Shown here: piece after piece, positions 49,439 through 52,844 of the stretch
How positions within the stretch are numbered: the first letter of the stretch is position 1
How the letters are laid out: each line of letters begins with the position of its first letter
NCBI RefSeq assembly: GCF_017084525.1
Contig: NZ_CP070950.1
Span: 992,001-1,056,000, forward strand
Reading direction: 5' to 3'
Length of the DNA: 64,000 nt
Origin: Conexibacter sp. SYSU D00693
Lineage (GTDB): Bacteria > Actinomycetota > Thermoleophilia > Solirubrobacterales > Solirubrobacteraceae
Position numbers and translations under genes: made by a program
The notes under the pieces: generated by a model
What the model was told of the DNA's origin: nothing
Seen by the model: only the letters and a program-made list of their open reading frames with translations
The model's database searches: none

Positions 49439-50920
49439 TCAGTCGACCGGCGCCCGCCGCTGGGCCCACGGCGCCGCCTCCTCGAGCTGCGCCGCCAGGC
49501 GCAGGAGCAGCGCCTCGGAGCGCAGGCGGCCGACGAGCTGGACGCCGAGCGGCAGGCCCTCGGGCGTCCAGTGCAGCGGGAGGCTGATGGCCGGGCGGCC
49601 GGTGACGTTCGCGAGCTGGGTGTACGGCACCCAGCCGAGGTTGCGCTGGACGATCTGGTCGACGACGCCGGTGAGCTGCATGAGCTTCGTCGTCCGGGTG
49701 CGCAGGAGGACCTCCGACACGGTGCGCAGCGGCGCGGGGAGGTCGAGGGAGCCGACGGGGATCGGCGGCTCGCCGAGAGTCGGAGTCAGCAGGAGGTCGT
49801 AGTCCTCGTGGAACCGGGCGAGCGCGGCGATGTGCTCCTTGCGGCGCTCGTCGGCGGCCTGCAGCTCGACGCCGCTGGTCAGGCGGCCCAGGGCGGCCAT
49901 GACGCGGGTGTCGGCCTCGAAGCCCTCGTCGCCGGCGCCGGTGAGGCGCTTGACGTGCTCGACCTCGATCGCCTGGTGCACGAACCAGATCGTCAGGAAG
50001 TCCTTGGCCAGCTGCTCGTCGTCGTGCGGGGCGGCGACGGGCTCGACGTGGTGGCCGAGGCCCTCCAGGAGCTCGGCGGCGTGCTCGACGGCGCGGACCG
50101 CCTCGGGGTGCGGCGTGGCGCGCACCGCGGAGTCGACGGTCCAGCCGATGCGCAGCGTGCCGGGATCGCGGCCGAGCTCGTCGAGCAGCGGGCCGTCGGG
50201 CAGGCCGGGCGCGTACGGGCTGATCGCCTCCGGGCCGATGAGGACGTCGAGCATCGCGGCGGTGTCGCGGACGGTGCGCGACACGACGCCCGCGGTGGCC
50301 AGCCCGTTGAGGGGCTCGCTCTCGGTCGGCCCGTGCGGGACCAGGCCGCGGCCCGCCTTCAGGCCGACCAGGCCGCAGCACGCGGCCGGGATGCGGATCG
50401 ACCCCCCACCGTCGCTGGCGGCCGCCACCGGGACGATGCCCGCGGCGACCGCCGCGGCCGCCCCGCCCGACGAGCCGCCGGGCGTACGGGCCAGGTCCCA
50501 CGGGTTGCGCGTCGGCCCGAACAGCGCCGGCTCGGTGATGCCCTTGGAGCCGAACTCCGGCGTCGAGGTCTTGCCGAACACGACCACGCCGGCGTCCAGC
50601 CAGCGCTGCACGACGGTCGCCGTCTCGGTGGCGGGCCGGCCGGCGAGCGCCCGGCAGCCCGACGACGTCGGCACCCCCGCCAGGTCCTGGTGGAGGTCCT
50701 TGAGCAGGAAGGGCACGCCGGCGAACGGCCCCTCGAGCTCCTCCGCGGCCCGGGCCTCCGCGCGGTCGTCGAGGCGCAGGCAGATCGCGTTGAGCTTCGG
50801 GTCCAGCCGGTCGGCGCGCGCCCGTGCGGCGTCGAGCGCCTCGCGGGCCGTGGTCCTCCCTTCCCGGATCGCCTCGGCGAGCCCGAGGCCGTCGAGCTCC
50901 ACGTACTCGCGCTCGTCCAC
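49439..50920 (-). CDS. Amidase (amidase signature family)
   Basis: A 493-residue hydrolase. The Ser-cisSer-Lys triad is visible: Lys in GVPFLLKDLH, the Gly/Ser-rich signature GGSSGGAAAAVAAGIVPVAA, and the nucleophile in ASDGGGSIRIPAACCGLVGL. The C-terminal YTQLANVTGRPAISLPLHWT and GLPLGVQLVGR complete the fold. GTG at 50920 (VDEREYVELD) is chosen; a GTG three codons upstream is an alternative. It lies 35 nt downstream of the P450 gene on the same strand, possibly co-transcribed. The substrate is unknown. Confidence 0.93.
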   Translation of the reverse strand: MDEREYVELDGLGLAEAIREGRTTAREALDAARARADRLDPKLNAICLRLDDRAEARAAEELEGPFAGVPFLLKDLHQDLAGVPTSSGCRALAGRPATETATVVQRWLDAGVVVFGKTSTPEFGSKGITEPALFGPTRNPWDLARTPGGSSGGAAAAVAAGIVPVAAASDGGGSIRIPAACCGLVGLKAGRGLVPHGPTESEPLNGLATAGVVSRTVRDTAAMLDVLIGPEAISPYAPGLPDGPLLDELGRDPGTLRIGWTVDSAVRATPHPEAVRAVEHAAELLEGLGHHVEPVAAPHDDEQLAKDFLTIWFVHQAIEVEHVKRLTGAGDEGFEADTRVMAALGRLTSGVELQAADERRKEHIAALARFHEDYDLLLTPTLGEPPIPVGSLDLPAPLRTVSEVLLRTRTTKLMQLTGVVDQIVQRNLGWVPYTQLANVTGRPAISLPLHWTPEGLPLGVQLVGRLRSEALLLRLAAQLEEAAPWAQRRAPVD

Positions 50921-50955
50921 GCGGCGCACCGTATCCGGGAGCGCCGCGCCTGGCG

Positions 50956-52185
50956 TCAGCCCACGCGCACCGGGATCGACACGTGCTGGTTGAGGAACAG
51001 CGCCTGGATGCGCTCGGGCTGACCGTCGAGGACGAGGTCCGGGAACCGGTCGAGCGTCTCCTCGATCCAGATGCGCAGCTCGAGGCGCGCGAGGGCGGCG
51101 CCGAGGCAGAAGTGCCGCCCGCCGGCGCCGAAGGCCTGGTGGCGGTCGAGGCCCTCGCGGGTCACGTCGAAGCGCTCGGGGTCGTCGAACAGCTCGGGGT
51201 CGCGGTTGCTGGCGATGTACCAGAGCAGGACGCGGTCGCCCTCCCGGATCGTCTGGCCGTGGAGCTCGACGTCGCGGGTCGCGGCGCGGCCCATGAAGCC
51301 GAAGGCCGGGAAGCAGCGCAGCCCCTCCTCGACCGCGTTGGGGATGAGCGAGCGGTCGTCGATGAGCAGCTGGCGCTGCTCGGGGTCCTTGATGAGCGCG
51401 AGCATCGTCGCGCAGTAGGTCGCGCGGGTGCTGTCGTTGCCCGCGGCGAGCAGCAGGACGAAGAACGTCGCGATCTCGAGGTCGTCGAGCTTGTCGCCGC
51501 CGACCTCGGCGTTGATGAGCGCCGTCAGGAGGTCGTTGCCGGGGTCCTCGACGCGCTGCTCGCGCACGGCGTTGATGTACGTGACGACGTCGTGGATCTC
51601 GCCCATCGTGTCGTCCCACTGCGTGCGGATCTGCGGGTCCTCGAACGCCGTGGCGACGTTGGTCCAGTGCAGGAGCTTGTGGTCGTCGGACTCGGGGGTG
51701 CCGAGCAGCGAGCCGATGACGCGCGCGGGCACCTGGCGGCCGAGGTCCTTGACGAGGTCGAAGCGGTCGCGGCCGGCGAGGCGGTCGAGCATCGTGCGGA
51801 CGATCTCGCGCGTGTGGTCCTCGTGGGCGGCGATGCGCTTGGGCGTGAACGCGCGGCCGACGAGCTGCTTGAGGCGGTCGTGGCGCGGCGGGTCCATCGA
51901 GATCATCTGCAGGCGCTGGACGTCGAGCGGGGCGCCGAAGTCGTCGACGAGGAAGATGCCGCGCCTCTCGGAGCTGAACGTCTGGAAGTCGCGCGTCGCG
52001 GCGTGGACGTCGGCCGCGCGCGTCAGCGACCAGAAGCCGCCCTCGTCGGGGTAGCGGCGGTTCGGGCTGAAGTGCACCGGCGCCTCGCGGCGCAGCTGGG
52101 CGAAGAGCTCGTACGGCGGGTCCTCGGTCCAGAGGGCGTGGTCGCCGAGGTCGATGGTGCTGGGGTCGAGCGCCGTGGTTGACAT
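50956..52185 (-). CDS. Cytochrome P450
   Basis: A 409-residue soluble monooxygenase. The I-helix is LLLAAGNDSTRATYCATML, the ExxR is in VEEGLRCF, and the haem-binding loop is FGAGGRHFCLGAALARLEL with the axial Cys in place. It resembles CYP families of actinobacteria acting on steroids, terpenes or fatty acids; the substrate is not predictable. No ferredoxin or reductase gene is nearby. ATG at 52185 lies 7 nt from a TAGGCT -10, so the mRNA is leaderless; two TetR operators cover this promoter. Confidence 0.95.
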   Translation of the reverse strand: MSTTALDPSTIDLGDHALWTEDPPYELFAQLRREAPVHFSPNRRYPDEGGFWSLTRAADVHAATRDFQTFSSERRGIFLVDDFGAPLDVQRLQMISMDPPRHDRLKQLVGRAFTPKRIAAHEDHTREIVRTMLDRLAGRDRFDLVKDLGRQVPARVIGSLLGTPESDDHKLLHWTNVATAFEDPQIRTQWDDTMGEIHDVVTYINAVREQRVEDPGNDLLTALINAEVGGDKLDDLEIATFFVLLLAAGNDSTRATYCATMLALIKDPEQRQLLIDDRSLIPNAVEEGLRCFPAFGFMGRAATRDVELHGQTIREGDRVLLWYIASNRDPELFDDPERFDVTREGLDRHQAFGAGGRHFCLGAALARLELRIWIEETLDRFPDLVLDGQPERIQALFLNQHVSIPVRVG

Positions 52186-52193
52186 GGTGTCAA
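52179..52193. promoter_or_regulatory. TetR operator 1 at the P450 start
   Basis: TTGACATGGTGTCAA, perfect 6-bp arms around TGG. It overlaps the P450 ATG and predicted transcription start. It shares TGACA-N3-TGTCA with the second site. Confidence 0.72.
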
Positions 52194-52221
52194 GCCTACG
52201 GATGACAGGGTGTCATTGCAA
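52193..52221 (-). promoter_or_regulatory. P450 promoter (leaderless)
   Basis: Minus strand TTGCAA (52221-52216), 17-bp spacer, TAGGCT (52198-52193), then 7 nt to the ATG. The spacer is almost entirely operator 2. On the plus strand GTGTCA-17-TATGCT (52210-52238) could drive the tetR gene. Confidence 0.6.
52202..52216. promoter_or_regulatory. TetR operator 2 between P450 and tetR
   Basis: ATGACAGGGTGTCAT, perfect 6-bp arms around GGG, centred 23 bp from operator 1. It covers the P450 promoter spacer and the -35 region of the tetR promoter, so one repressor could control both genes. Confidence 0.72.
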
Positions 52222-52247
52222 GCCGTCTCTCGTATGCTGTCGGTGAG

Positions 52248-52844
52248 ATGGGCGTCCTGGACCGCCAGCCTCGCCGCAATGACCCCCGTCGCGACCGCAC
52301 GGAGGAGGCGTTCCTCACCGCCGCCCAGGAGCTCCTGGACGAAGGGGTCCCCTTCGCCGAGCTCAACGTCTCGGCGCTCGCTCGCCGGGCCGACCGGACC
52401 CGCACCGCCTTCTACGCGCACTTCGAGGACCGCCGGGCGCTGCTCATGCGCCTGGTCACCGAGGTCGAGCAGGACATCCGCGCCGCGGTCGGCCCGTTCT
52501 TCGACGCCTCCGACGACGACGTCCACGGCGCGCTCGCCGGCCTGCTCGCCACGCTGCGCGAGCACCCGCGCACGCTCGGCGCGATCCTCGAGGCCGCGGG
52601 CTACGACGCCGAGGTCGCGGCGTTCTGGCACGGCGTCGTCGGCGTCTTCGTCGCCGCCGCGCAGCAGCGCCTCGTCGCCGCCGGCTACGCGTCCAAGGCC
52701 GCCCGCGCCCGTGCGGTCGCGCTCGTCTGGATGACCGAGCGCGCGTGCTCCCAGCAGGTCCTGCACGGCCACGCGGGCGTCGACGACGACGCGCTGCTCG
52801 ACGCGCTGGCCGACAGCTGGCGCCTGGCGCTGGCCGCGGCCTAG
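52248..52844 (+). CDS. TetR family regulator of the P450 gene
   Basis: A 198-residue protein divergent from the P450. The helix-turn-helix spans about 20-65 (EEAFLTAAQELLDEGVPFAE; LARRADRTRTAFYAHFEDRR). The C-terminal ligand domain has VFVAAAQQRLVAAGYASKAA. It resembles EthR-like regulators in layout, which often control monooxygenases. ATG at 52248 lies 9 nt from TATGCT. Two perfect TGACA-N3-TGTCA palindromes in the 62-bp divergent region predict that it represses itself and the P450. Confidence 0.92.
   Translation: MGVLDRQPRRNDPRRDRTEEAFLTAAQELLDEGVPFAELNVSALARRADRTRTAFYAHFEDRRALLMRLVTEVEQDIRAAVGPFFDASDDDVHGALAGLLATLREHPRTLGAILEAAGYDAEVAAFWHGVVGVFVAAAQQRLVAAGYASKAARARAVALVWMTERACSQQVLHGHAGVDDDALLDALADSWRLALAAA

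What the first reader, a model, noticed from the sequence alone, without database searches (positions are those of the whole stretch)
52179..52221. Two TGACA-N3-TGTCA operators controlling a leaderless P450 promoter
One palindrome fills the -35/-10 spacer and the other overlaps the start codon of the P450. The divergent EthR-like TetR gene uses the same region. The operator motif is clear enough to search for other targets.
Basis: partly seen in the sequence, partly recalled or inferred. Interest (0 to 1): 0.5.

Follow-up and report, generated by a model that had tools for sequence, protein, structure and literature searches.

The report
EthR-like repressor sites at P450 promoter
Two matching DNA palindromes between a cytochrome P450 gene and its neighbouring EthR-like repressor gene are very probably that repressor's binding sites, one inside the promoter and one across the P450 start codon, and related bacteria use the same DNA word at several oxygen-using enzymes.

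Summary
Confirmed: TGACA-N3-TGTCA occurs exactly twice in the window, 23 bp apart, in the 62 bp between a P450 and a divergent TetR gene. Site 52203-52215 fills most of the P450 -35/-10 spacer; site 52180-52192 contains the P450 ATG. The TetR is EthR-like by domain, sequence and predicted fold. The palindrome precedes EthR-like TetR genes at 32-50% identity and P450 relatives, and its TTGACA-N3-TGTCAA form occurs in 46 of 232 genomes of the order (73 sites; reversed control none). In 55 of 70 loci around those sites a P450, R2lox-like or desaturase-like gene starts within 260 bp. Leaderless transcription is supported: 11 of 31 operator-bearing P450 promoters have TANNNT at -12/-13, none of them with a Shine-Dalgarno, against 15 of the other 20. 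TTGACACCATGTCAA embeds the start codon in four of four genes. The outer base follows the recognition helix (RT with T, RA with A, RS with G; RP mixed). No binding or RNA data exist. The divergon is a new member of a known kind; the family-wide operator pattern is the more interesting part.

The parts
52180..52192 (.). Operator A, TGACATGGTGTCA (TTGACACCATGTCAA on the P450 strand with flanks); contains the P450 ATG (52185-52183)
   Evidence: same 15-mer with embedded ATG at L136, L139, L105
52203..52215 (.). Operator B, TGACAGGGTGTCA; in the P450 -35/-10 spacer and over the likely TetR -35
   Evidence: aligned counterpart AGACACAGTGTCATTGCAAGC in L012
52216..52221 (-). P450 -35-like hexamer TTGCAA
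   Evidence: conserved in L060
52193..52198 (-). P450 -10-like hexamer TAGGCT, 7 nt before the ATG
   Evidence: TANNNT at -12/-13 in 11 of 31 operator-bearing P450 promoters
50956..52185 (-). Cytochrome P450, 409 aa; nearest solved structures CYP125 ancestor and CYP124
   Evidence: PF00067 E 1.9e-27; PDB CYP125MRCA E 1.6e-100, CYP124 1e-78
52248..52844 (+). EthR-like TetR repressor, 198 aa, recognition helix R52-T-A-F-Y-A-H58
   Evidence: PF21313 and TetR_N, EthR in PDB, model pLDDT 92.5, EthR top fold
52233..52238 (+). TetR -10-like hexamer TATGCT, 9 nt before the ATG; operator B covers position -35 (GTGTCA 52210-52215)
   Evidence: read; inference
49439..50923 (-). Amidase frame directly downstream of the P450, probably co-transcribed (start codon not determined)
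   Evidence: PF01425 E 1.2e-92

Best explanation
The divergent EthR-like TetR protein (RTAFY recognition helix) binds both TGACA-N3-TGTCA palindromes as dimers. At site B it blocks the P450 -35/-10 region and its own -35; at site A it covers the P450 transcription start, which coincides with or lies next to the ATG. It thus represses a leaderless P450(-amidase) transcript and itself until an unknown, probably lipophilic, ligand releases it. Shown: the palindromes, the gene layout, the fixed ATG, the EthR-like fold (predicted model), and the recurrence of the operator with this TetR type and with P450 relatives. Inferred: binding, repression rather than activation, cooperativity between the two sites, the leaderless start, the ligand.
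For: Exact pair in a 62-bp divergent gap. GACA-N3-TGTC upstream of 37 of 154 EthR-like TetR genes (43 sites), 0 in equal stretches of their coding sequence, 0 for the reversed core, 0-1 at each other spacer of 0-8. TGACA-N3-TGTCA exact: 18 of 43 RT-helix TetRs, 2 of 111 others. Outer base tracks the helix: RT T 47 of 52 half-sites, RA A 10 of 10, RS G 7 of 8; label shuffles 0 of 20000 reach the score. 73 TTGACA-N3-TGTCAA sites in 46 of 232 genomes, control 0 in every row. Leaderless: -10 at -12/-13 in 11 of 31, Shine-Dalgarno 0 of 11 against 15 of 20, p 7e-5. Ser2 is TCA, 4 of 401 Ser codons in 25 called window genes and the P450's only TCA.
Against: 12 of 35 RTA-helix TetRs have no such core (exact or one mismatch) in 280 bp upstream, though two of these (L014, L015) carry it downstream. 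Sequences are related, so shuffle and Fisher values overstate. Site A is absent in the G034 divergon. Promoter hexamers are weak. Pair spacing varies: 23 here, 22 at four R2lox-like loci, 28 at L139. G000 has another RTA-helix TetR (C1:1706512) that might read the same sites. RP-helix TetRs do not follow one outer base.
Confidence: 0.82

Rival explanations
1. The palindromes are not operators but back-to-back -35 boxes (TTGACA on both strands) of divergent promoters.
For: TTGACA-N3-TGTCAA contains the sigma-70 -35 consensus on each strand; in L061-L063 and L065 its left arm can serve as -35.
Against: Site B is ATGACA/TGTCAT. In the g13 clade the palindrome lies downstream of the -10 (TANNNT at -49/-50, palindrome at -36/-37). 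AGACA, GGACA and CGACA versions occur with other TetR helices. A fixed 3-bp spacer is not needed for -35 boxes.
Confidence: 0.06
2. The sites are bound mainly by another RT-helix EthR-like TetR of the genome (C1:1706512, beside the R2lox-like gene), with the adjacent TetR acting elsewhere or jointly.
For: G000 has a second RTA-helix TetR and further TGACA sites away from any TetR. In the order-wide set, P450 loci with the operator lack an adjacent TetR match in 24 of 25.
Against: Divergent layout with operators in the shared gap; the closest relatives (N. vinacea, G034) keep TetR and palindrome together.
Confidence: 0.2
3. Only site B is functional; site A is a coincidence of ATG-TCA codons.
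For: Site A is missing in G034 while site B is kept. Several P450 N-termini begin MST.
Against: The exact 15-mer with embedded ATG recurs at two other P450s and a flavin monooxygenase, each with the rare TCA at codon 2 and a TANNNT hexamer 6-7 nt upstream (sequences).
Confidence: 0.15

Closest known systems
EthR-ethA divergon (Mycobacterium)
   Same: TetR with EthR_C domain, divergent from an oxygen-using enzyme gene, short shared promoter; EthR reported to bind cooperatively as an octamer and repress both genes (passages of PMC5403819). TetRs with the EthR-type RPTFYFYF helix found here carry CGACA/CAACA-N3-TGTCG-type pairs 20-21 bp apart at five loci.
   Different: Enzyme is a P450, not EthA; outer base T not C; exact palindromes instead of the 55-bp imperfect direct repeats described for EthR (passage of PMC5660060).
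LoaR (Rv0078, EthR2) - Rv0077c
   Same: Start codons 61 bp apart, operator over the +1 of both divergent genes, two dimers on the operator (passages of PMC6016246).
   Different: One 21-bp operator with dimers staggered by 7 bp, against two 13-bp palindromes 23 bp apart; lower-ranked fold match.
MSMEG_3765 / Rv1685c TetR motif
   Same: 36-bp palindromic motif extends into the coding sequence and overlaps a putative TATA box 10 bp before the start (passages of PMC5660060).
   Different: Different TetR and motif; controls an efflux operon.

Membership tests
EthR-like TetR (Pfam EthR_C) | EthR_C domain over the curated cut-off | tested here: met
   35.9 bits against 27
EthR-like TetR (Pfam EthR_C) | TetR_N DNA-binding domain | tested here: inconclusive
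   23.9 bits, just under 24; model shows helices at 41-47 and 52-58 where the helix-turn-helix is expected
EthR-like TetR (Pfam EthR_C) | EthR as nearest fold | tested here: met
   ranks 1-25 are EthR, TM by query 0.73-0.80
EthR orthologue | divergent from an EthA-type monooxygenase | tested here: not met
   partner is a P450; filed as EthR-like, not EthR
TetR-repressed divergon | palindromic operators in the shared promoter | tested here: met
TetR-repressed divergon | binding and ligand-reversed repression | not testable with these tools
   no binding or expression data
Leaderless promoter | -10 hexamer 6-7 nt before the ATG and no Shine-Dalgarno | tested here: met
Leaderless promoter | mRNA 5' end at the start codon | not testable with these tools
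   needs 5'-end mapping

The most novel reading that the evidence does not exclude
EthR-family repressors share one operator frame, xGACA-N3-TGTCx', in which the outer base is read by the residue after the conserved Arg of the recognition helix (Thr T, Ala A, Ser G). In this order of actinobacteria the T version marks a regulon of oxygen-activating lipid-type enzymes (P450s, R2lox-like diiron proteins, desaturase/AlkB-like proteins, a flavin monooxygenase), and at leaderless genes the operator has repeatedly been built around the start codon.
Probability: 0.45. Interest if true: 0.65.

Novelty: new member of a known kind. Interest (0 to 1): 0.45.

Why it matters
It gives a testable operator for a large group of uncharacterised EthR-like repressors and suggests what EthR itself recognises. 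It also places R2lox-like proteins, whose role is to my knowledge still unclear, under the same control word as lipid-type P450s and desaturase-like proteins, which hints at a shared inducer. The start-codon operator is a compact design for leaderless genes.

Tried and rejected
Strict sigma-70 scan: no promoter, so the promoter call rests on comparison, not consensus. Plasmid tblastn of the TetR: no match. Paper searches for the motif written in several ways: 0 papers; for TGACA/TGTCA with TetR, palindrome and P450: nothing relevant in the listing; R2lox with TetR or operon, and Solirubrobacter with TetR and P450: nothing on this in the listings. The library holds open-licence papers only. A simple four-residue to four-base code was considered: it holds for T, A and S but RP helices are mixed (C 4, T 7, A 4, G 1 half-sites), so P to C was dropped as a general rule. 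A fixed pair spacing was considered: 22, 23 and 28 bp occur, so not fixed. I considered whether the other four exact sites of the genome are true targets: the context fits for one (desaturase-like gene and two P450s, L043) and perhaps for a ferredoxin-reductase-like gene (L041); two are uncertain (L042, L044).

Rows dropped or chosen: alignment A1 was chosen for RTAFY helices, so its invariance there means nothing. One search dropped profile hits starting after model position 40 and duplicates by first 80 residues. 25 of its 154 rows gave no match to the helix expression and count as 'other'; one locus (L239) gave two rows, the second without usable upstream. One search used 73 loci (L059-L070, L098-L158), kept only genes with an operator in -110 to +12, and dropped duplicate upstream stretches; thus its 31 P450s are selected for having an operator. 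In one search the enzyme queries came partly from operator-bearing loci, so L093, L098, L099, L155-L158 are partly circular, and many loci belong to one genus.

Full report
What is there. Between the ATG of a P450 (50956-52185, minus) and the ATG of a TetR gene (52248-52844, plus) lie 62 bp. Two exact TGACA-N3-TGTCA palindromes, 52180-52192 and 52203-52215, stand 23 bp apart there, the first running into the P450 start codon. Nothing else in 64 kb matches within two mismatches. The window's composition predicts 0.017 exact matches per 64 kb and about 1.2 per genome (few simulated hits, so rough); the genome has 6, and 0 for the reversed pattern.

The proteins. The P450 carries PF00067 and is closest among solved structures to a CYP125 ancestor (E 1.6e-100) and CYP124 (1e-78); the entries' names point to steroid and methyl-branched lipid oxidation, but the substrate here is unknown. 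The TetR has EthR_C (35.9 bits, cut-off 27) and a TetR_N match just under its cut-off. EthR is the best PDB sequence match (E 1.1e-6) and the top 25 fold matches of a confident model (pLDDT 92.5) are all EthR. The recognition helix is residues 52-58, RTAFYAH. An amidase frame follows the P450 (PF01425).

Promoters. On the P450 strand TTGCAA and TAGGCT are 17 bp apart with site B in the spacer, and TAGGCT ends 7 nt before the ATG. An in-frame TGA 30 nt upstream leaves no earlier start. The hexamers are weak and a strict scan reports none. The comparative evidence is better. In G034 (P450 75% identical) the same order recurs: TTGCAA, palindrome TGACACTGTGTCT in a 17-bp spacer, TACGCT, 6 nt, ATG. 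Among 31 operator-bearing P450 genes (selected for the operator, duplicates removed), TANNNT stands at -12 or -13 in 11 and at -49 or -50 in 10. Shine-Dalgarno-like tetramers are present in 0 of the 11 and 15 of the other 20. So two promoter plans exist, leaderless and with leader, and the window has the leaderless one. For the TetR gene, TATGCT (52233-52238) lies 9 nt before its ATG and site B covers its -35 position; this is read from the sequence only.

The start-codon operator. TTGACACCATGTCAA occurs at four of the 73 sites in the order: the window, two further P450s (L136, L139) and a flavin monooxygenase-like gene (L105; FMO-like and Pyr_redox matches). In four of four the ATG of the 15-mer is the gene's start, with TAGGCT, TACGCT, TACCTT or TAGCTT 6-7 nt upstream. 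All four use TCA for Ser2. TCA is 4 of 401 serine codons in 25 called window genes, and is the only TCA of the P450, of L139 and of L105, but not of L136, which has four. The arrangement is absent from G034, so it is recurrent rather than conserved.

The operator belongs to the TetR type. I collected 154 EthR-like TetR rows (loci; extraction). In 280 bp upstream, GACA-N3-TGTC occurs 43 times at 37 genes. Controls: 0 in equal stretches of coding sequence, 0 reversed, and 0 or 1 at each other spacer from 0 to 8. Exact TGACA-N3-TGTCA stands before 18 of 43 TetRs with an RT helix and 2 of 111 others. The outer base varies with the helix: RT with T in 47 of 52 half-sites, RA with A in 10 of 10, RS with G in 7 of 8, RP mixed. 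TetRs with the helix RPTFYFYF carry C[GA]ACA-N3-TGTCG-type pairs 20-21 bp apart at five loci. Shuffling labels never reached the observed agreement in 20000 trials, but the proteins are related and the test ignores this. Misses: 12 of 35 RTA TetRs have no such core upstream, two of which have it downstream, before a desaturase/AlkB-like gene.

Other targets. TTGACA-N3-TGTCAA is found in 46 of 232 genomes of the order, 73 sites, with 0 reversed matches in every row. I fetched stretches around all of them, 70 loci. In 55 of 70 one of three enzyme classes begins within 260 bp of the site: P450 (25), R2lox-like (21), desaturase/AlkB-like (11), two loci having two classes; 14 of the 55 also have the TetR there. 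The R2lox-like protein scores below NCBIfam's cut-offs for R2lox (137 bits against 194) but its best PDB matches are R2lox (E 3e-26). 15 of 70 have none of the three, among them the flavin monooxygenase-like L105 and one contig end, L100. In this genome the remaining exact sites lie before a ferredoxin-reductase-like gene, between a GntR-like gene and an indolepyruvate-oxidoreductase-like gene, between a desaturase-like gene and two P450s, and before a small unknown protein.

Comparison. The layout matches known mycobacterial divergons. EthR is described as an octamer on the shared ethA-ethR promoter (PMC5403819, passages) with a 55-bp operator of imperfect direct repeats (PMC5660060, passages). 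LoaR/Rv0078 acts in a 61-bp gap over both +1 sites with two dimers (PMC6016246, passages). A TetR motif running into the coding sequence over a TATA box is reported for Rv1687c and relatives (PMC5660060, passages). A survey of mycobacterial TetRs gives motif logos for 30 regulators, not readable as text here, and calls EthR's motif non-classical (PMC4482099, passages); I therefore cannot say that the palindromes are absent from print. Text searches for the motif gave no paper.

Organism. A family member's contig (G028:C147, 4293 bases) appears to be the same as a record titled Solirubrobacterales bacterium (L003), so the order is probably Solirubrobacterales; this is inference.

Noticed in passing
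L094-L097, L103, L106, L108, L109, L133, L134, L148, L155, L156: R2lox-like diiron genes share a divergent operator region with EthR-like TetR genes across several genera, at some with two operators 22 bp apart.
   Followed up: partly
L105:1735-3239: A flavin monooxygenase-like gene whose ATG is embedded in TTGACACCATGTCAA, with no TetR match on its short contig; EthR's own partner EthA is also a monooxygenase.
   Followed up: partly
L066-L070: P450 relatives (55-58% identical) carry AGACA-N3-TGTCT palindromes upstream; four of the five loci hold a TetR with an RATFY helix (the fifth, L069, overlaps L040, which has one). Three of the five genes have a leader.
   Followed up: partly
L076, L079: More distant P450 relatives have another palindrome-like element (around CTGGCTG/CAGCCAG or a variant) at the promoter, suggesting a different regulator.
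   Followed up: no
window 49439-50923; L043:2977-4560; L001:5683-7185: Amidase genes (PF01425) lie near operator-linked P450 or TetR genes in three places, hinting at an amide substrate.
   Followed up: partly
L046, L047, L177, L179: TetRs with RSTFY helices have GGACA-N3-TGTCC or hybrid palindromes upstream.
   Followed up: partly
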